A stretch of 47,407 bases of DNA from Candidatus Omnitrophota bacterium (GTDB taxonomy: Bacteria > Omnitrophota > Gorgyraeia > Zapsychrales > JANLHA01), in contig JAKQKX010000067.1 in NCBI GenBank assembly GCA_029560465.1, positions 1 to 47,407 of the forward strand. Direction: 5' to 3'. Shown piece after piece: positions 2,643-47,407 of the stretch. Under the pieces are notes generated by a model that saw only the letters and a list, made by a program, of their open reading frames with translations, was not told where the DNA came from and ran no database searches. The position numbers were made by a program, and so were the translations under genes. The first letter of the stretch is position 1, and the number at the start of each line of letters is the position of its first letter.

Positions 2643-5159
2643 ATGAAATTAAAGAAAATCATCAGTGTTTTCATCCCCGCCATCGCGGGGTTTTTAATCC
2701 CCCCAGTATGTAGTTTTATTATACTGGGGGGTTTTTATTGGCAGCCGTTATTTTTGCCGGACGCCATGGCGCAAGGGGATAGCCCTGATTCCGGGGAACT
2801 TCCGGCCGGCGGTTCGATGGACAGAAAAGTCCGTGTGGGGCTATACGAAAACAAACCAAAAATATTCACAAGTGAGTCGGGGATGCCGTCGGGTATTTTC
2901 CCCGCCATTCTTCATGAGATCGGGCGAAAAGAAAAATGGCAGTTGATTTATACCCCTTGCCAGTGGAACGAATGTCTTGAGGCCTTGGAGAACGGCCGTA
3001 TTGATTTGATGCCGGACGTGGCTTTCTCTCCGGAACGGGACGAAAGAATAGATTTCCATTCCGAGGTGGTTGTGAACAGCTGGTCGGTCGTCTATGCCAA
3101 GAAAAGCAAACGGATGACCACGATCTCCGATTTGAACGGCCAGCGGATTGCCGTGCTGAAAGGCTCGATTCAGTACGGGCTTTTGCAGCAGATGGTGCAG
3201 GGATTTGGCTTAAAGGTTTCCTTTCTGGAGATGCCATCGTTTGAAGAAGCTTTTTGGGCAACAGCCCGTGGAGATGCCGATGCGGTTGTGGCCAATCAGC
3301 TCCTGGGCGATTATTTTTACCGGCAATACGGCCTGGAAAAACCCCCTGTCATTTTTAACCCCGTGTCACTATATTTTGCCACCGCCGCTGGTTCTAACAC
3401 GGATTTACTTAAGGCCATTGATAAAAATTTGCGGATTATGAAGTCCCAGCCCGGGTCGGCCTATTACAAGGCCTTGCAGGCCTGGGTCAAAGAAACGCCG
3501 GAGACGGTTATCCCGCCGTATTTTCTATGGCTGCTGGGTAGTGTGAGCGGGATTCTTCTCTTGGCTGTTGTGTTTATTTGGCTGCTGCGCCGGCAGGTCA
3601 GGGTGGTCACAAGAAATCTGGTTTGTGCCAATGAAAGGTTGAGCGAAAGCGAAAAGAAATTCCGCGACATTTTCCAAAAACACACAGCCGTCAAACTTAT
3701 TATTGACCTTAAGAACGGGAATATTGTTGAAGCCAATGAAGCCGCTGAAAAATTTTACGGATGGTCGAGGGATGAATTGCTGCGGATGCGGATACAGGAT
3801 ATCAACATGCTTGCGCCCGAACAGGTTGCCGCGGAGATGGAACAGGCCAGACAGAAAAGATGGTCCTATTTCGAATCCCGCTACCGCTTGGCCAACGGCT
3901 CTGCCCGGGATGTCGAGGTATTTAGCAGTGTGATTGATATTAAAGGTGAACCATTTCTTCACTCCATCATTCATGATATCACCGAGAAACGTAAACTGGA
4001 GCAGCAATACCGTCAGGCCCAAAAAATGGAATCCGTGGGCCGGTTGGCAGGAGGTGTTGCCCACGATTACAATAATATGCTTAGTTTGATTCTTGGTTAT
4101 ACGGAATTGGCGTTGGTCAAAATAGACCCGGCTGACCCGATTTATGCCAACCTGACCGAAGTGTTAAATGCTGCCCGACGTTCTGTTGACATCACCCGCC
4201 AACTCCTGGCCTTTGCCCGCCGGCAGCCCATGGAACCTAAAATTCTGGACCTGAATCAGTCTATGACAGCGATGCTTAAAATGCTCCGGCGGCTCATCGG
4301 CGAGGATATTGAGCTGACCTGGCGTCCCGGCGCCGAGGTGTGGTCAGTTTATATTGATCCGACCCAACTTGATCAGATTCTGGCCAACCTGTGTACCAAT
4401 GCGAGGGACGCTATTGCTGGAGTGGGAAAAGTCATTATCGAGACGGGAACTGTGACTTTCGACGAAGTCTACTGCGCGGGACATGAAGGCTTTATCCCTG
4501 GCGATTTCACCATGCTGGCTGTGAGCGACGATGGGTGCGGCATGGACCGGGAAACCCTTAACAATATTTTTGAGCCGTTTTTTACAACCAAAGGAGAGGG
4601 GAAGGGCACCGGGCTGGGCCTGGCGACTGTTTACGGCATCGTCAAACAGAATAACGGCTTTATCAATGTGTACAGTGAGCCGGGCCGGGGAACGGCCTTC
4701 CGGATTTATTTGCCCCGGCATGAGGGGGCCGTCGTTGAGATAATTTCCACCCGGGAGGAGGAGCTCCCCCGCGGTCATGGTGAAAGGGTGCTTTTGGTTG
4801 AGGATGATGAGTCAATCCTGGCACTGGGCGCTAAAATTTTGGAAGAATTTGGATATCATGTGCTGACGGCGAAGACGCCCACCGAGGCCCAGCGTCTGGC
4901 CGGCGCCCATGCCGGGGAAATTGATTTGCTTATTACCGACGTGATTATGCCGGAGATGAATGGCCGGGAGCTGTCTGACCGCCTGCGTGCTTTGTGTCCT
5001 GGCATGAAAATTTTGTTTATGTCGGGGTACACCGCCGATGTCATCATCCCCAGGGGTGTGCTGGAGGAGGGGGTGAACTTTATGCAGAAACCTTTCACGG
5101 TCAAAGATGTTTCCGTTAAGGTGAACCAGGCGTTGGGAAAAGGGCGCGAAGCGGTGTGA
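2643..5159 (+). CDS. Hybrid sensor histidine kinase with periplasmic solute-binding domain
   Basis: About 838 aa. Order: signal peptide ending near PDAMA|Q (1-43); periplasmic SBP_bac_3-type binding domain (about 61-283, with [14 protein letters not shown]-like core); one membrane helix (about 292-317); PAS domain (about 339-450); HisKA with phospho-acceptor His about 474 in GGVAHDYNN; HATPase_c with N box NARDAI and G box DDGCGMD; C-terminal receiver with phospho-Asp about 766 in [11 protein letters not shown]. The layout is BvgS-like: a ligand such as an amino acid is sensed in the periplasm and phosphate passes internally from His to the receiver. No Hpt domain or output regulator is adjacent. 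ATG 2643 is preferred, but an in-frame TTG at 2634 is possible. The signal-peptide codons contain two terminator-like hairpins (2675-2736), which is odd. Confidence 0.9.
2675..2695 (+). terminator. Terminator-like hairpin 1 inside the kinase signal-peptide region
   Basis: CCCCGC (2675-2680) and GCGGGG (2685-2690) form a 6-bp G/C stem with a 4-nt loop, followed at once by TTTTT. It has the form of an intrinsic terminator although it lies inside the reading frame. Confidence 0.6.
2699..2736 (+). terminator. Terminator-like hairpin 2 inside the kinase signal-peptide region
   Basis: CCCCCCAGTAT (2699-2709) and ATACTGGGGGG (2721-2731) are perfectly complementary over 11 bp with an 11-nt loop, followed by TTTTT. 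This is one of the strongest intrinsic-terminator shapes in the window. Together with hairpin 1 it suggests attenuation of the kinase gene, or the end of a short leader RNA. Confidence 0.7.
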
Positions 5160-42884: not shown

Positions 42885-42976
42885 GGAGAGGTGGCCGAGC
42901 GGTTTAAGGCGCACGCCTGGAGAGCGTGTGGCGGCCGAAAGGTTGCTCGAGAGTTCGAATCTCTCCCTCTCCGCCA
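42885..42976 (+). tRNA. tRNA-Ser (anticodon GGA)
   Basis: Acceptor GGAGAGG (42885-42891) pairs with CCTCTCC (42966-42972), discriminator G and encoded CCA (42974-42976). The anticodon arm CACGC-CTGGAGA-GCGTG gives GGA at 42919-42921. A long variable arm (GGCGGCCGAAAGGTTGCTC region) and T-arm GAGAG-TTCGAAT-CTCTC confirm a class II serine tRNA reading UCC/UCU. The cassette array starts about 390 bp downstream. Confidence 0.97.
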
Positions 42977-43364
42977 TTTATATCAAAAGTCTTCACTTAA
43001 ATGTTGATATAATGACGAAAACAGAACCCTATCCTGAAGGTCCCCATGCGGGGGGCTTCACCCCGCTGCCACAGAATTCTTTATCAATTCCATATCCAAA
43101 ATTATCCTTTGACGCGGCTTTAAGCCGGGTTGGAGGCAGGACAGGAGTATCTGCCCAAGTCAGCCCGGAGAAGGCGGAACGTGTTTGTTTGTGATAACAG
43201 CAGGGGGTTGTTATACGACGTTCCGGATAAGTGATATTACAGGGCCAATGGAGACCATTTTATAAAAAACAGGGCTATAATAATAAAAAATCGGGGTAAA
43301 AATTGAATTATTCAAATGCCAAGAAACACCGCCAACCAGCAAATGGATAAGTCGTTAAAGAATT
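42977..43364. other. Gene-free stretch between tRNA-Ser and the cassette array
   Basis: 388 bp without a convincing gene. It contains a 9-bp inverted repeat just after the tRNA (42978-43012), a GCGGGG/CCCCGC hairpin (43048-43066) and a short ATAACA/TGTTAT pair (43194-43214). No integron integrase gene is present, and an attI site cannot be recognised with certainty. Confidence 0.5.
42978..43012. repeat. 9-bp perfect inverted repeat after tRNA-Ser
   Basis: TTATATCAA (42978-42986) and TTGATATAA (43004-43012) are exact inverted copies, 17 bp apart, starting two bases after the encoded CCA. Confidence 0.6.
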
Positions 43365-43393
43365 GTTAGCCATCAATATGGAAATTTAAGAAA

Positions 43394-44191
43394 ATGTCGA
43401 ACAATATCGAAAAATATAAAAAGGATCTTGAAAAGCTGATTAAGCACGGTGAATCACTTCAAATAGCCATGGAGTGTGAGTGCTACCCAGAGCAATACGA
43501 GAAAGCCCTTGGGGATAAATTCAAAGAATTTAAAAAAAAGCTCCCAAAGTTTAATGATGAATATCAGTCGTGGTATTCAGAGGCAAAGGTTTTAATCAAG
43601 CAGCTACTTCCTGACAGATTATCCGACTTTGAGCGGCACTATGAGAAACCCAAACCAAGAAAAGATATAACATCTGATAACTACCGTATCGAAGATTATT
43701 TACAGGGTCTATCCGTTACGCGCGGCTGGGAAAAGGAAAAAGTTGTTGGCCCCGATGCAGCGATACCACAATTCAAGCAACAGCTTGCAATTGTTAAAGC
43801 AGTATCTTCACGTTTCGAAAGTTCATTGTTTGATATCCGTCAAATCGTTCAAGCTGATTTATTTGACTCAGAGCTAGAAGCAGCAAGAGAATTAATAAAG
43901 AATGGTTTCCTGAGGGGTGCCGGCGCAATATCAGGTGTTGTGTTAGAAAAGCATCTTGGCCAGGTATGCGAAAATCACAACATTAAAACTCGCAAAAAAC
44001 ATCCAGCCATTAGTGATTTCAATGACATTTTGAAAGATGGTGGCGTTTTAGATACGCCATCTTGGCGGCAAATCCAAAGGCTTGGAGATATTCGGAATCT
44101 TTGCGACCACAATAAAGACCGTGACCCTACAAAAGAGGAAGTAGAGGAACTGGTTAATGGGGTTGAGAAATTTACTAAAACACTATTCTAA
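43394..44191 (+). CDS. Cassette 1: HEPN-domain protein
   Basis: A 265-aa protein. The N-terminal part (about 1-125) is helical and charged. The C-terminal part (about 155-265) looks like a HEPN fold: AARELIKNGFLRGAGAISGV, then RNLCDHNKDRDP with Arg234 and His239 in the R-x4-H pattern of HEPN ribonucleases. HEPN domains occur in toxin-antitoxin, abortive-infection and RNA-processing systems; the similar DUF4145 group is also possible. As an integron cassette it is likely a mobile, possibly defensive gene. Start 23 bp after the cassette boundary. Confidence 0.75.
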   Translation: MSNNIEKYKKDLEKLIKHGESLQIAMECECYPEQYEKALGDKFKEFKKKLPKFNDEYQSWYSEAKVLIKQLLPDRLSDFERHYEKPKPRKDITSDNYRIEDYLQGLSVTRGWEKEKVVGPDAAIPQFKQQLAIVKAVSSRFESSLFDIRQIVQADLFDSELEAARELIKNGFLRGAGAISGVVLEKHLGQVCENHNIKTRKKHPAISDFNDILKDGGVLDTPSWRQIQRLGDIRNLCDHNKDRDPTKEEVEELVNGVEKFTKTLF

Positions 44192-44196
44192 ATAAT

Positions 44197-44204
44197 GGCT
44201 AACA
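44197..44204 (+). other. Left part of attC 1 (R'' core), split by the IS
   Basis: GGCTAAC (44197-44203) is the R'' core complementary to the GTTAGCC that begins cassette 1. The rest of this attC continues at 45932 after the IS110-family element. Confidence 0.75.
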
Positions 44205-44339
44205 CCCATATGGTCCCCGAAGTCAAGAGATAAATAACTCCCCGTCGCTATTTTTGTCATTGCAAACAGCATGTCAAAGTAAACCAGCGTCTCAGACAAC
44301 AGAATAATCCGACGTCCTGACTTAATCTCGAGGGGAGTT

Positions 44340-44775
44340 GTAGAAGAAGACTTCTACACTAAACACCCATAGAGCCTCGTGGCCCGGCAGAAGCCAGGAG
44401 TTAACACGGCGGTCCGTGTGGGCTAGAGAATGATACATGCCCTTGTGCCGGCTTAATCAAATACACAGATTATCCTGATCGTTTCAGGACAACAGTTAGT
44501 GGCGAGCTCGGGTAAGGGGCAGAAGTCAAGAGATTCAATTGTCCAAGAGCAAATTTAGCAGGCACGGGCAGCAAGGCTTAATCAAGCGCGGCTGGTTTTA
44601 CAAATAGGGCTTAAGAGTTTGTAGGAGATTAAGATCTCAGGTTTTTGTTATTTACAAAACTCTCAACAAGCCCAGAGAACGTTCACCAGTTAGACGTTGA
44701 AGCTGACCCAATTAATCAGCAAGCCGAAAGGTGCGAAGGCTTGGCTTAGGGCTGCAGCCCGGCCTGAACGTCAAC
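44340..44775 (-). ncRNA. Candidate bridge RNA region of the IS110-family element
   Basis: IS1111-group elements encode their bridge RNA in the non-coding end downstream of the transposase, here on the minus strand below 44771. The region has hairpins: GGGCTT-a-AGAGTTT (44607-44620) with AAACTCT...AAGCCC (44657-44673), and GTAGAAG/CTTCTAC (44340-44346/44351-44357). ACACCCATA at 44363-44371 repeats the IS left-end junction (44202-44210), as a donor-binding segment would. Exact ends and target loop not determined. Confidence 0.4.
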
Positions 44776-45805
44776 AGTTTAAGAATTTATTCATATTGAA
44801 CACCGTTCCTCTGTTAAGCATAAAATAAACTGTGTGAGCCAATTGCCTGGCGATGATGCTGTAGGCGAGTTTTTTGCCTTTGCGGCTGGCTAGTTTTTCG
44901 AAATATTTCTGTATTTCCGGGTTGAATTTTATAACATAGGACGCGGCCTCCGAGAAGGCGCGTTTGAGGTGGGGGTTGCCGATTTTGCTGTTCGATCCGG
45001 CATATTTTTTGCCGGCAGACTCGTGTGAGCATTTGATGAGCCGGCAGTAGGAGACAAAATTCTGTGGCCGGGCAAAGCGCTGAATGTGATCGATTTCATA
45101 TAGTATGGTGAGGGCGATAATTTCGCCGACCCCGTGGATACTTTGGAGGATGTGCAATTGCTGGCGGTTGTGGGTCCTGGTGTGTTGCAGGATATAGACC
45201 TCCAGGTCACGAATGACGGTGTCGTAGTGCTCCAGTAACTGCAGGTTGGCGGCCAGGGACTGGTCTTTGAAAAGAGAGGGGAGATCTTTGCTTTTGTAGT
45301 TGGCCTTGGAGAGCCTGCCGAGGGGGGGGTTGTTGACCTGATGATTCAGGAGTTGAATATGGGCAAATAGGTCCGCGCGCTGGTGCACAAAGTATAATCG
45401 GCGGCGCAGGAGATCGCGCAGGTGGCGTTTGCTGCCCGGGTAGACATAGGCGAGGGGGAACAGTCCGCTTTGGATGAGCCTGGCGATTTTCTCGGAATCG
45501 ACCCGGTCGTTCTTGACCTTGGAGCCGTGGATGGCTTTCATGTATAAGGCGTGGCCGAGAATAAATTCAATGTTGTTGTCGAAACATAAATCTGCTAGCC
45601 AGTACCAGGCGTAGGTGCTTTCGCAGCCAAGGACCAGGTCGTGTTGGTAGGGTGCGATCATTTTCAGAAACACCTCGGTCTGCTGGTTTTGCACGTTTTT
45701 ATGCAGGATTTTTTTCTGATCGCGGTCGATGACACAGAGGTACATATTGCTTGAATGCAGGTCCACGCCGCAGTAAAATTGGGAATGAGGTTGGTAAAAG
45801 TTCAT
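44771..45805 (-). CDS. IS110-family transposase (DEDD recombinase)
   Basis: A 344-aa transposase. The N-terminal RuvC-like DEDD domain has Asp15 (CGVDLHS), Glu62 (GCEST), Asp100 and Asp103 (KNDRVDSEKIARL). The C-terminal Transposase_20 domain has LQSIHGVGEIIALTILYEID (about 215) and SKIGNPHLKRAF with the conserved Ser near 280. IS110 recombinases work with a bridge RNA that pairs with donor and target. The gene is intact, and a GAGGCCAGAC-type site precedes ATG 45805. It opposes the cassette direction. Confidence 0.93.
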   Translation of the reverse strand: MNFYQPHSQFYCGVDLHSSNMYLCVIDRDQKKILHKNVQNQQTEVFLKMIAPYQHDLVLGCESTYAWYWLADLCFDNNIEFILGHALYMKAIHGSKVKNDRVDSEKIARLIQSGLFPLAYVYPGSKRHLRDLLRRRLYFVHQRADLFAHIQLLNHQVNNPPLGRLSKANYKSKDLPSLFKDQSLAANLQLLEHYDTVIRDLEVYILQHTRTHNRQQLHILQSIHGVGEIIALTILYEIDHIQRFARPQNFVSYCRLIKCSHESAGKKYAGSNSKIGNPHLKRAFSEAASYVIKFNPEIQKYFEKLASRKGKKLAYSIIARQLAHTVYFMLNRGTVFNMNKFLNC

Positions 45806-45931
45806 GTCTGGCCTCCTTGGTTAAAGATGAGTCTATGGCCGCGGACCTCTTCCGCGTGACCACGCTAATCATAGGATGATTTTGGCGACAAAATCAATCC
45901 TCACTCGTAACTGAGGGGGCCATGACATTAT

Positions 45932-45997
45932 CAAGGCGCTCGTTCGGACGCAAACTACGCTGCGCTTCGTTTGCGCCGCACAGCTTCAACGTTATGC
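45932..45997 (+). other. Right part of attC 1 (L'', L', R' core)
   Basis: After the IS, AAGGCGCTCG leads into a stem CGG-a-CGCAAAC / GTTTGCG-CCG with one unpaired A, and ends at GTTATGC (45991-45997). The unpaired base and imperfect palindrome are attC hallmarks. Together with 44197-44204 it makes an attC of about 70 bp. The recombination point starts cassette 2 at 45992. Confidence 0.75.
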
Positions 45998-46028
45998 AAA
46001 ATAAGAATTAAAATGGGAATATAATTAT

Positions 46029-46595
46029 ATGGCTGCAATAAAGATTTGTAATGATGCCAGAAAGCATTTTAAAGAAATACTAAATACGGGAATGGTAGAT
46101 GCTTTGAACGCGTTGCGGGATGAAGACAGAAAACAACTAGAAGATATTTTAAATGATGAGCAAATTTGGAAAAATAGTGAGAAGGAACCTTATGAAATTT
46201 CTTTCTTTTTAGGATTAAGAAGGGGTACCTATAATTTAATTTATGAACAGTTTTTATATAATAACTATTTGTATTTTGTTCCAGGTATTCATGATACCAA
46301 TCAAAAGAAATTGTTAGTAATGAATTTATTTGATTCGGAAAGAAGAAAATTTGAGAGATTACAAAATAAATTTTCAAAAAATCATGAAACTAGATATGAG
46401 AGGCCTAGAATACCCGAGAAGGTTAGAGTAGATGTTTGGCGGAGGGATAAAGGATGTTGTGCTCAATGTGGATCCCGCGACAAATTAGAATACGATCACA
46501 TTATTCCTATATCTAAAGGGGGTAGTAATACTGCTCGAAATATTGAATTGCTTTGTGAGGAATGCAATCGTAGGAAACGGGATAAAATTCAATAA
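46029..46595 (+). CDS. Cassette 2: HNH endonuclease
   Basis: A 188-aa protein with a C-terminal HNH nuclease: CAQCGSRDKLEYDHIIPIS with Asp156-His157, Asn171, and zinc-binding pairs Cys144/Cys147 and Cys176/Cys179 (LCEECN). The first about 125 residues are helical and not recognised; they may bind a partner or target. The sequence is AT-rich compared with the chromosomal genes. Free-standing HNH cassettes occur in integrons and defence islands. Start at ATG 46029, 38 bp after the boundary. Confidence 0.88.
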   Translation: MAAIKICNDARKHFKEILNTGMVDALNALRDEDRKQLEDILNDEQIWKNSEKEPYEISFFLGLRRGTYNLIYEQFLYNNYLYFVPGIHDTNQKKLLVMNLFDSERRKFERLQNKFSKNHETRYERPRIPEKVRVDVWRRDKGCCAQCGSRDKLEYDHIIPISKGGSNTARNIELLCEECNRRKRDKIQ

Positions 46596-46607
46596 AAGAA
46601 GAAAATT

Positions 46608-46666
46608 GCATAACAAGGCACTTCAGCGGATGCCGCAGCCTCGCAAGGCCGCTGAGTCCGTTATAG
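46608..46666 (+). other. attC 2
   Basis: A 59-bp site from GCATAAC (46608-46614) to GTTATAG (46660-46666). The inner arms CAGCGG and CCGCTG flank a variable terminal region. GCATAAC is the exact complement of GTTATGC, the start of cassette 2. Confidence 0.8.
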
Positions 46667-46695
46667 GTAAATTAAATCACTTAAGGAGGTAAAAG

Positions 46696-47007
46696 ATGGC
46701 GTATAGGGAACCTCGCGCATTAACTAATAGTGAAATTGAAAAGATCAAGTCAATTATTGAGGATTACAAAATTAGCGATCATATTGATTTTCAAATTGAA
46801 GAAGGCTCAATCGAATTATCTTTCGATCAGTGCATTTTTGCTGTACGAGCATTTAATACACCCGAAGGTGAAAATAAATATAGGATGGCTGAGTGTACAG
46901 TTGAACCCAAAACGCCCCTTCCCGCTTATGAATATGATGATTTTAAGTCTATTTGTTTACAGTGCAAGATATGGTGCCGAGAAATAAGAGATAAATTTTC
47001 AACTTAG
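46696..47007 (+). CDS. Cassette 3: protein of unknown function
   Basis: A 103-aa acidic protein starting at ATG 46696 after TAAGGAGGTAAAAG, an ideal ribosome site. Helical start (TNSEIEKIKSIIEDYKISDH), then a beta part (IDFQIEEGSIELSFDQCIFA) and a Cys-containing end (CLQCKIWCREIRDK). No family recognised. Small cassette proteins of this type are often orphan, and an immunity or antitoxin role cannot be excluded. Confidence 0.75.
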   Translation: MAYREPRALTNSEIEKIKSIIEDYKISDHIDFQIEEGSIELSFDQCIFAVRAFNTPEGENKYRMAECTVEPKTPLPAYEYDDFKSICLQCKIWCREIRDKFST

Positions 47008-47011
47008 AGTG

Positions 47012-47110
47012 CTATATCAAAGATTTGGAAAGCAATGAGGTCATTTAAAAGGCAGAATAAATCTTTTACTCCGCTGCGCTCCGTAAAAACCAGTGAGTTC
47101 TTCGTTGTGT
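47012..47110 (+). other. attC 3 (longer, degenerate)
   Basis: From CTATATC (47012-47018; complement of GTTATAG with one mismatch) to GTTGTGT (47104-47110). The inside holds a TTTTAC...GTAAAA hairpin around CTCCGCTGCGCTCC. At 99 bp it is longer than attC 2 and less regular. Confidence 0.55.
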
Positions 47111-47129
47111 GAGGAAAAAGGAACCCAAT

Positions 47130-47407
47130 ATGCAAGATAATCATCCCGTCTGGCTGTTCAATGAATCGAAGCACGTTGGCGTTGACTATTCCGATACCGG
47201 GGTAGCCGCAGACTATGATAACCGGCACCAGGGTTTCCGAGATTTCGAGGCTGAAGCCGAAAGGATTGCCGTTGCTCTTGATTTATCAGCTAACTCAACC
47301 GTGCTCGACATCGGGTGCGGAACGGGCGGCCTTTCCGTCTGCCTTGCTCGGAAGTGCAAAAACGTCTACGCCGTGGACATTTCGCAAGCAATGGTCGAGG
47401 TCCTAAA
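47130..47407 (+). CDS. Cassette 4: class I SAM-dependent methyltransferase (cut by window end)
   Basis: The frame starts at ATG 47130 after GAGGAAAAAGGA, 20 bp behind the cassette boundary, and runs off the right edge (92 codons visible). Motif I VLDIGCGTGGLSVCLA and the acidic residue at the end of strand 2 (VYAVDIS) define a Rossmann-fold methyltransferase. The N-terminal VDYSDTGVAADYD segment is common in UbiE/Methyltransf_11-type enzymes. Substrate unknown. Confidence 0.85.
   Translation, partial: MQDNHPVWLFNESKHVGVDYSDTGVAADYDNRHQGFRDFEAEAERIAVALDLSANSTVLDIGCGTGGLSVCLARKCKNVYAVDISQAMVEVL

What the first reader, a model, noticed from the sequence alone, without database searches (positions are those of the whole stretch)
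44205..45933. IS110-family element inserted precisely inside an attC site
Removing 44205-45933 joins GGCTAACA to AGGCGCTCG and gives a normal attC. CA stands at both junctions, and subterminal inverted repeats (ATGGTCCCC / ATGGCCCCC) lie just inside the ends. This fits the IS1111-attC group known to target cassette recombination sites, here in a lineage that seems little studied.
Basis: partly seen in the sequence, partly recalled or inferred. Interest (0 to 1): 0.7.

Follow-up and report, generated by a model that had tools for sequence, protein, structure and literature searches.

The report
RNA-guided insertion element targeting integron cassettes
A small jumping gene sits exactly inside the joining site of a bacterial gene cassette; it belongs to a widespread and separate lineage that appears to have learned to hit these joining sites independently of the known one, and its own guide RNA can be read from the sequence.

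Summary
Confirmed: 44205-45933 is a 1,729-bp IS110/IS1111-superfamily element whose removal restores an attC hairpin (44197-44204 + 45934-45997). CA stands at both joints. A homologous cassette in another genome of the same order (82% aa) has an uninterrupted attC, and the nucleotide match to it ends at 44204.

Corrected: it works like the IS1111-attC group but is not a member. The transposase is about 22% identical (partial match only) to ISPa21, a 90% relative of ISKpn4. A tree puts ISPa21, ISKpn4 and ISPpu24 with IS4321; one clade with the window is rejected (AU p = 3e-5). Those elements cut about 5-7 bp further into the attC spacer.

The window's lineage is found in MAGs and isolates labelled with a dozen or more phyla, mostly at the same attC position. 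The 566-bp non-coding region carries a predicted bridge RNA. One internal motif equals the five bases before the core at the element's right end in 39 of 40 elements (shuffled mean 9); the exception is wobble-compatible. A relative's cassette array holds ~370-bp satellites without transposase or guide in attC sites. Mobility and RNA function are inferred, not measured.

The parts
44205..45933 (-). the insertion element (1,729 bp; 44203-45931 is equally valid because CA is at both joints); left end at high coordinates, right end at low coordinates
   Evidence: joints and healed attC; same ends in relatives
44771..45805 (-). transposase gene, 344 aa, DEDD_Tnp_IS110 plus Transposase_20; D15, E62, D100, D103 and S263 invariant in the 6-member alignment
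   Evidence: Pfam, NCBIfam NF033542 187.6 bits over cut-off 140, alignment
44205..44770 (-). 566-bp non-coding region downstream of the transposase, carrying the predicted bridge/seek RNA
   Evidence: alignment of 40-55 relatives
44688..44696 (-). unit 1, 5' strand: CGUCUAACU; CUAAC can pair with GTTAG of the target's right half
   Evidence: guide scan: highest mean match for target-right antisense (z 3.1); position
44583..44591 (-). unit 1, 3' strand: CCGCGCUUG, candidate guide for the target's left half (weak)
   Evidence: guide scan z 3.0; position
44435..44529 (-). unit 2, most conserved stem-loop; resembles unit 1 (CTAACTG ... TTTGAT) but shows no match to target variation
   Evidence: covariance model R1 built without the window finds it at 54.4 bits, E 3.8e-9; stem with compensatory changes
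44425..44434 (-). unit 3, 5' strand: candidate guide for the left end (donor right half)
   Evidence: guide scan, top z 5.0; only 6 of 10 positions match in the window itself
44364..44372 (-). unit 3, 3' strand: CUAUGGGUG, donor guide equal to the right end ATATGGGTG except the first base
   Evidence: guide scan z 9.3; 39/40 exact 5-nt matches across elements
44210..44222 (.). right-end subterminal inverted repeat ATGGTCCCCGAAG
45911..45923 (.). left-end subterminal inverted repeat (reverse complement ATGGCCCCCTCAG)
44221..44226 (-). TTGACT, -35 half of a predicted circle-junction promoter (17 bp from GATAAT once the ends are joined)
   Evidence: junction sequence; TTGAC conserved in right ends of relatives
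45927..45932 (-). GATAAT, -10 half of the same predicted promoter
44197..44204 (+). R'' end of the interrupted attC (GGCTAACA)
45934..45997 (+). rest of the interrupted attC, ending in GTTATGC
43365..44204 (+). cassette 1 up to the joint; gene 43394-44191 weakly similar to HEPN (below Pfam cut-off)
   Evidence: 82% aa relative in G033 with intact attC; Pfam
46029..46595 (+). cassette 2, HNH endonuclease gene
   Evidence: Pfam HNH 4.3e-13
46608..46666 (+). second attC, uninterrupted, same AACAAGGC phase
   Evidence: sequence

Best explanation
The feature is an RNA-guided IS of the IS110/IS1111 superfamily that parasitises integron cassette arrays. It belongs to a lineage that is separate from, and probably convergent with, the IS1111-attC group. 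Model: the ends join into a circle (RE-TG-LE), making a promoter (TTGACT-N17-GATAAT) that drives the transposase and downstream RNA. The RNA has a donor loop (unit 3) that pairs with both halves of the circle joint and a target loop (unit 1) that pairs with the R'' side of attC (T-TG-TTRRR in IS orientation). The DEDD/Ser transposase exchanges strands at the shared TG (CA) core, so the element enters between AACA and A of attC, always with the transposase opposed to the cassettes, and without target duplication beyond the core. The interrupted attC can no longer fold, so cassette 1 should be locked to its neighbour until the IS leaves precisely. Shown here by sequence: ends, core, attC target in many copies, a covarying donor guide, conserved RNA units, a separate phylogeny, satellites. 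Inferred: circle, promoter activity, RNA pairing, catalysis, loss of attC function.
For: Joint and healed attC hairpin. Intact attC on a homologous cassette. Same ends in dozens of relatives and attC at most of their joints; real joints fold better than 400 other TTGTTR sites (p 4e-6). Donor guide: 39/40 exact over 9 right-end types, shuffled maximum 19 in 10,000; without the ATATG types 26/26. De novo scan puts the right-end guide (z 9.3) and the left-end guide (z 5.0) on the two strands of one predicted unit. Unit 2 found by a model that never saw the window, with compensatory pairs. Separate lineage: tree and AU test. NF033542 'IS110 family RNA-guided transposase' above cut-off. IS621 and ISCro4 are sequence relatives with solved structures. 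Satellites in attC sites of G033.
Against: Target-guide evidence is weak (z about 3), partly because the attC target hardly varies. The left-end guide matches the window itself at only 6 of 10 positions. At least 8 relatives sit at sites that do not look like attC (for example L035, L057, L070, L073, L079, L089, L095, L101), so the specificity may be for T-TG-TTRRR rather than for attC as such. Only one copy exists in the window's genome, so recent movement there is not shown. No RNA, circle or transposition was measured. Related sequences are not independent, so shuffles overstate significance. The tree has long branches (IS4321, ISEsa2, the Rhizobium row) and the program warns about joins between them.
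Confidence: 0.85

Rival explanations
1. It is an ordinary member of the known IS1111-attC group (ISKpn4/ISPst6/ISPa21/ISPa25).
For: attC target, transposase opposed to cassettes, downstream non-coding region, 344-aa transposase, subterminal repeats.
Against: ISPa21 vs window: partial match only, about 22% identity, E about 0.004-0.01, whereas ISPa21 vs IS4321 is 30% over full length. Single clade rejected, p-AU 3.4e-5. Known members cut in the AACAATTC..TTCAAGCC spacer, the window at AACA|A. No unit-2 RNA in ISPa21, ISKpn4 or ISPpu24.
Confidence: 0.06
2. The transposase recognises the folded or double-stranded attC directly by protein contacts; the non-coding region has another role (end recognition or regulation).
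For: The attC target is structured and only T-TG-TTRRR is shared; target-guide signal is weak.
Against: Donor-guide matching 39/40; the same superfamily is shown to be RNA-guided (PMC11187229, PMC11208160); some insertions lie at unstructured sites with the same short motif.
Confidence: 0.08
3. There is no insertion: the transposase gene is simply cargo of an integron cassette with its own attC.
For: It lies between two cassette genes.
Against: No attC of its own; both attC halves flank it; the related cassette has an unbroken attC; the same exact ends occur in unrelated arrays.
Confidence: 0.01

Closest known systems
IS1111-attC group (ISKpn4, ISPst6, ISPa21, ISPa25)
   Same: DEDD transposase of the same superfamily, inserted in the R''-L'' spacer of attC, transposase opposed to the cassettes, downstream non-coding region, subterminal repeats
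   Different: transposase about 22% identical over part of the length only; separate clade (AU p 3.4e-5); cuts at AACA|A rather than about AACAATTC..|TTCAAGCC; repeats, terminal extensions and non-coding region differ; longer element (clade mostly about 1.57-1.8 kb)
IS110-family bridge RNA elements (IS621, ISCro4)
   Same: transposase homologous in the C-terminal domain; RNA with target and donor loops meeting at a core dinucleotide is the model used here
   Different: non-coding region downstream, longer subterminal repeats, TG/CA core, three conserved stem-loop units
IS1111 family proper (IS4321, ISEc11, ISPa11)
   Same: downstream guide RNA, 330-350 aa transposase, target-top complement placed before the bottom-strand match (PMC11187229)
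   Different: transposase only distantly similar (IS4321: about 21-27%); extensions are not 7 and 3 bp; repeats imperfect
ISGsu4-like IS110 elements (Paraburkholderia, P. aeruginosa H15)
   Same: nearest sister group among the references used (32% identity)
   Different: the two such loci looked at (P. aeruginosa H15, Undibacterium) show no recognisable attC at their joints

Membership tests
IS110/IS1111 superfamily (DEDD transposases) | DEDD RuvC-like domain plus C-terminal Transposase_20 domain with catalytic Ser | tested here: met
   Pfam PF01548 and PF02371 over cut-off; NF033542 over cut-off; D15, E62, D100, D103, S263 invariant
IS1111 family | transposase related along its full length to IS1111-type transposases and clustering with them | tested here: not met
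   IS4321 and ISPsy16 fall with ISPa21/ISKpn4, window clade apart
IS1111 family | 11-13 bp perfect or near-perfect subterminal repeats with 7- and 3-bp terminal extensions | tested here: not met
   10/13 matching; extensions 8 and 5 bp without the core (clade mostly 8 and 4); definition from PMC11187229
IS1111 family | long non-coding region downstream of the transposase, encoding a guide RNA | tested here: met
   566 bp downstream; covarying donor guide
IS1111-attC group | insertion in attC | tested here: met
   healed attC, intact related cassette
IS1111-attC group | same position within attC as ISKpn4/ISPst6/ISPa25 | tested here: not met
   ISPa21, ISKpn4 and ISPpu24 joints lie about 5-7 bp further into the spacer; ISPst6 and ISPa25 not retrieved, described as the same site in PMC11187229
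IS1111-attC group | transposase clade with ISKpn4/ISPa21 | tested here: not met
   AU test p 3.4e-5
bridge RNA systems | non-coding RNA with loops matching donor ends around the core | tested here: met
   right-end guide 39/40, left-end guide z 5.0
bridge RNA systems | loop matching the target on both strands | tested here: inconclusive
   CTAAC opposite TTTG in units 1 and 2; z about 3 only, because targets vary little
bridge RNA systems | RNA expressed, bound to the transposase and needed for movement | not testable with these tools
   needs an experiment

The most novel reading that the evidence does not exclude
A second, independently evolved lineage of attC-targeting IS110-superfamily elements, spread over many bacterial phyla, whose bridge RNA carries a donor loop that visibly coevolves with the element's right end and two target-loop-like units, and which supports transposase-free satellites (some keeping the guide RNA, some without it) that spread through cassette arrays in trans.
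Probability: 0.6. Interest if true: 0.75.

Novelty: new variant of a known kind. Interest (0 to 1): 0.64.

Why it matters
It suggests that RNA-guided insertion elements reached the same niche, the integron attC site, at least twice, by different guides and at different bases. It extends attC-targeting elements from clinical gammaproteobacteria to a large part of the bacterial tree. Hundreds of natural elements with matched ends and guides give a ready test set for how IS110-type guides are read and retargeted. The satellites offer natural evidence that ends, guide and transposase can be supplied separately. For integrons it is a mechanism that can freeze a cassette in place, possibly reversibly.

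Tried and rejected
First genome-contig scan with the single window protein found nothing; the alignment query succeeded. Viral contigs gave no relative. Rfam gave no family in the element. A simple R'/R'' complementarity test was not discriminating because the boxes are short and degenerate, and an ungapped arm test was weak because attC arms are bulged; replaced by full folding. My first end-finder sometimes took the internal donor-guide motif for the right end; corrected with the TTGAC anchor, which is how the motif was noticed. RNAalifold on unit 2 alone supported only the outer 5-bp stem. P. aeruginosa H15 and Undibacterium relatives at 30-32% show no attC at their joints. ISPa21 was found by way of papers naming the plasmids. 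One 2.2-kb locus (L176) was fetched by hit number before its title showed that it came from a pINV plasmid; it holds only insertion-sequence genes and was not used. The original IS1111-attC papers (Tetu and Holmes 2008; Post and Hall 2009) could not be read here (for the former; the latter was not looked up and did not appear in the searches), so I cannot exclude that a member of this clade was mentioned there.

Full report
What is there. The window (contig C54 of a 2.77-Mb, 103-contig genome) ends inside a cassette array that starts just after a tRNA-Ser gene (42885-42976). Cassette 1 (gene 43394-44191) is followed by GGCTAACA (44197-44204), then 1,729 bp, then AGGCGCTCG...GTTATGC (45934-45997), then an HNH cassette and a second, intact attC (46608-46666). 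Joining the two halves gives GGCTAACAAGGCGCTCG...CAACGTTATGC, whose bottom strand folds like an attC (-15.0 kcal/mol; 3 of 500 shuffles as low). CA stands at both joints, so the exact boundary can slide by two bases.

Independent check of the empty site. A genome of the same order (G033) carries cassette 1 at 82% protein identity. There the sequence ATGGCTAACA runs straight on into an uninterrupted attC. The nucleotide match to the window covers 43365-44204, from the GTTAGCC box upstream to exactly the proposed joint. The two attC sites differ beyond this point, so the comparison shows an intact attC on the relative, not an identical empty site.

The element. It encodes a 344-aa DEDD transposase and a 566-bp downstream non-coding region. 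Imperfect subterminal repeats (10/13) lie inside the ends. Joined ends would give TTGACT-N17-GATAAT, a likely circle-junction promoter of the kind reported for ISEc11 (PMC11187229); this is inference.

Relatives. Plasmid and genome searches gave ten plasmid-borne relatives at 41-47% identity that were fetched and 447 genome relatives, of which 80 were fetched (best 54%). Ends could be found in 62 loci, with a few of those assignments set aside as doubtful afterwards. The left end reads [TG]ATA... and the right end TTGAC...[TG]TT; the shared core is TG in the element's orientation. Healing gives recognisable attC hairpins in most of them, and as a group they fold better than 400 other TTGTTR sites from the same loci (p 4e-6), although those controls include real attC sites. 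At least eight lie at sites with the same short motif that do not look like attC. Record titles and origins name a dozen or more phyla; these are mostly MAGs and some labels may reflect misbinning (L054 and L056 hold the same sequence under two labels).

The guide RNA. Aligned non-coding regions show three conserved units. A scan that asked, without prior choice of place, where the non-coding region follows the element's own ends and target gave these results. The right end is mirrored at one place with z 9.3. The left end's complement is matched with z 5.0 on the opposite strand of the same predicted unit (unit 3, donor loop). The complement of the target's right half matches best in unit 1, with the left half on its other strand, both at z about 3. 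The right-end match is exact over the five bases before the core in 39 of 40 elements across nine right-end types. Shuffling gives a mean of 9 and a maximum of 19 in 10,000, and the one exception (ATACG against ATATG) is wobble-compatible. The window's odd right end, ATGGG, is copied in its guide (44364-44372). Shared ancestry inflates shuffle statistics, but ATAAG, ATAGG, ATAGA and ATATG recur in different parts of the set with their guides. Unit 2 (44435-44529) resembles unit 1 but showed no signal for the target; a covariance model built without the window finds it there (54.4 bits, E 3.8e-9) and not in ISPa21, ISKpn4, ISPpu24, ISPsy16 or the ISGsu4-like loci. Its outer stem has many compensatory changes.

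Not the known group. ISPa21-like was located on an Enterobacter plasmid; it is 90% identical to elements annotated as ISKpn4. Its transposase matches the window's only partially at about 22%, but IS4321 at 30% over full length. In a 44-row tree the window's clade is one side of a branch (97/96) and the IS1111-attC group lies with IS4321 and ISPsy16 (97/96). Holding both attC-targeting groups together is rejected (p-AU 3.4e-5). The tree has long branches, so its deepest joins are uncertain. ISKpn4, ISPa21 and ISPpu24 joints fall between AACAATTC and TTCAAGCC, about 5-7 bases from the window's AACA|A. Convergence is therefore the best reading; a common attC-targeting ancestor with losses cannot be fully excluded.

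Satellites. G033 has 25 matches to a 374-bp sequence: left end, a piece of the transposase's start with a stop, and right end, without guide RNA. Complete copies of about 370 bp sit in several different attC sites, four of them 90-100% identical to one another's reference copy over the whole query. On contig C71 two stretches carry unit 2 and the donor guide but almost no transposase. No intact transposase of this kind was found in the G033 assembly. This fits mobilisation in trans; the source may be lost or unassembled.

Effect on the integron. The insertion separates R'' from the rest of attC, so cassette 1 should no longer be excised alone; precise loss would restore it. A similar effect was suggested for ISPa21 (PMC11616780). 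The window's genome has no integron integrase above cut-off; G033 and G289 do. The array may be an integrase-less cluster, or the integrase may be missing from the assembly.

Verdict. The family assignment is wrong in an interesting way: same niche, other lineage. The mechanism is well supported on the donor side by covariation, moderately on the target side, and untested experimentally.

Noticed in passing
G033 (same order): L025 5490-5860, 6914-7284, 10575-10946; L030 1384-1753; and others: Short (about 320-371 bp) non-autonomous derivatives with both ends of this element type but no guide region, each inside a different attC of a cassette array.
   Followed up: partly
L184 (G033:C71) about 1300-2200 and 3400-3800, minus strand: Derivatives that keep the guide-RNA region but almost no transposase; one right end is followed directly by another element's guide region (TGTTTTGCCCC...), suggesting recombination between copies or insertion of one element into another.
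   Followed up: partly
window 42977-47407 and own genome: Cassette array begins about 400 bp after tRNA-Ser(GGA) with a GTTAGCC box at 43365; no integron integrase above cut-off in the genome, so possibly an integrase-less cassette cluster.
   Followed up: partly
window 44435-44529 versus 44583-44696: Two stem-loop units with the same CTAAC ... TTTGA layout lie in tandem; only the first shows (weak) matching to the target. The role of the second is unexplained.
   Followed up: partly
L054 and L056: The same element and flanks occur in MAGs labelled Deltaproteobacteria and Lentisphaeria, a sign of misbinning or very recent transfer.
   Followed up: no
L035, L057, L070, L073, L079, L089, L095, L101: Copies of this element type at non-attC sites that share only the short T-TG-TT motif (secondary targets).
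   Followed up: partly
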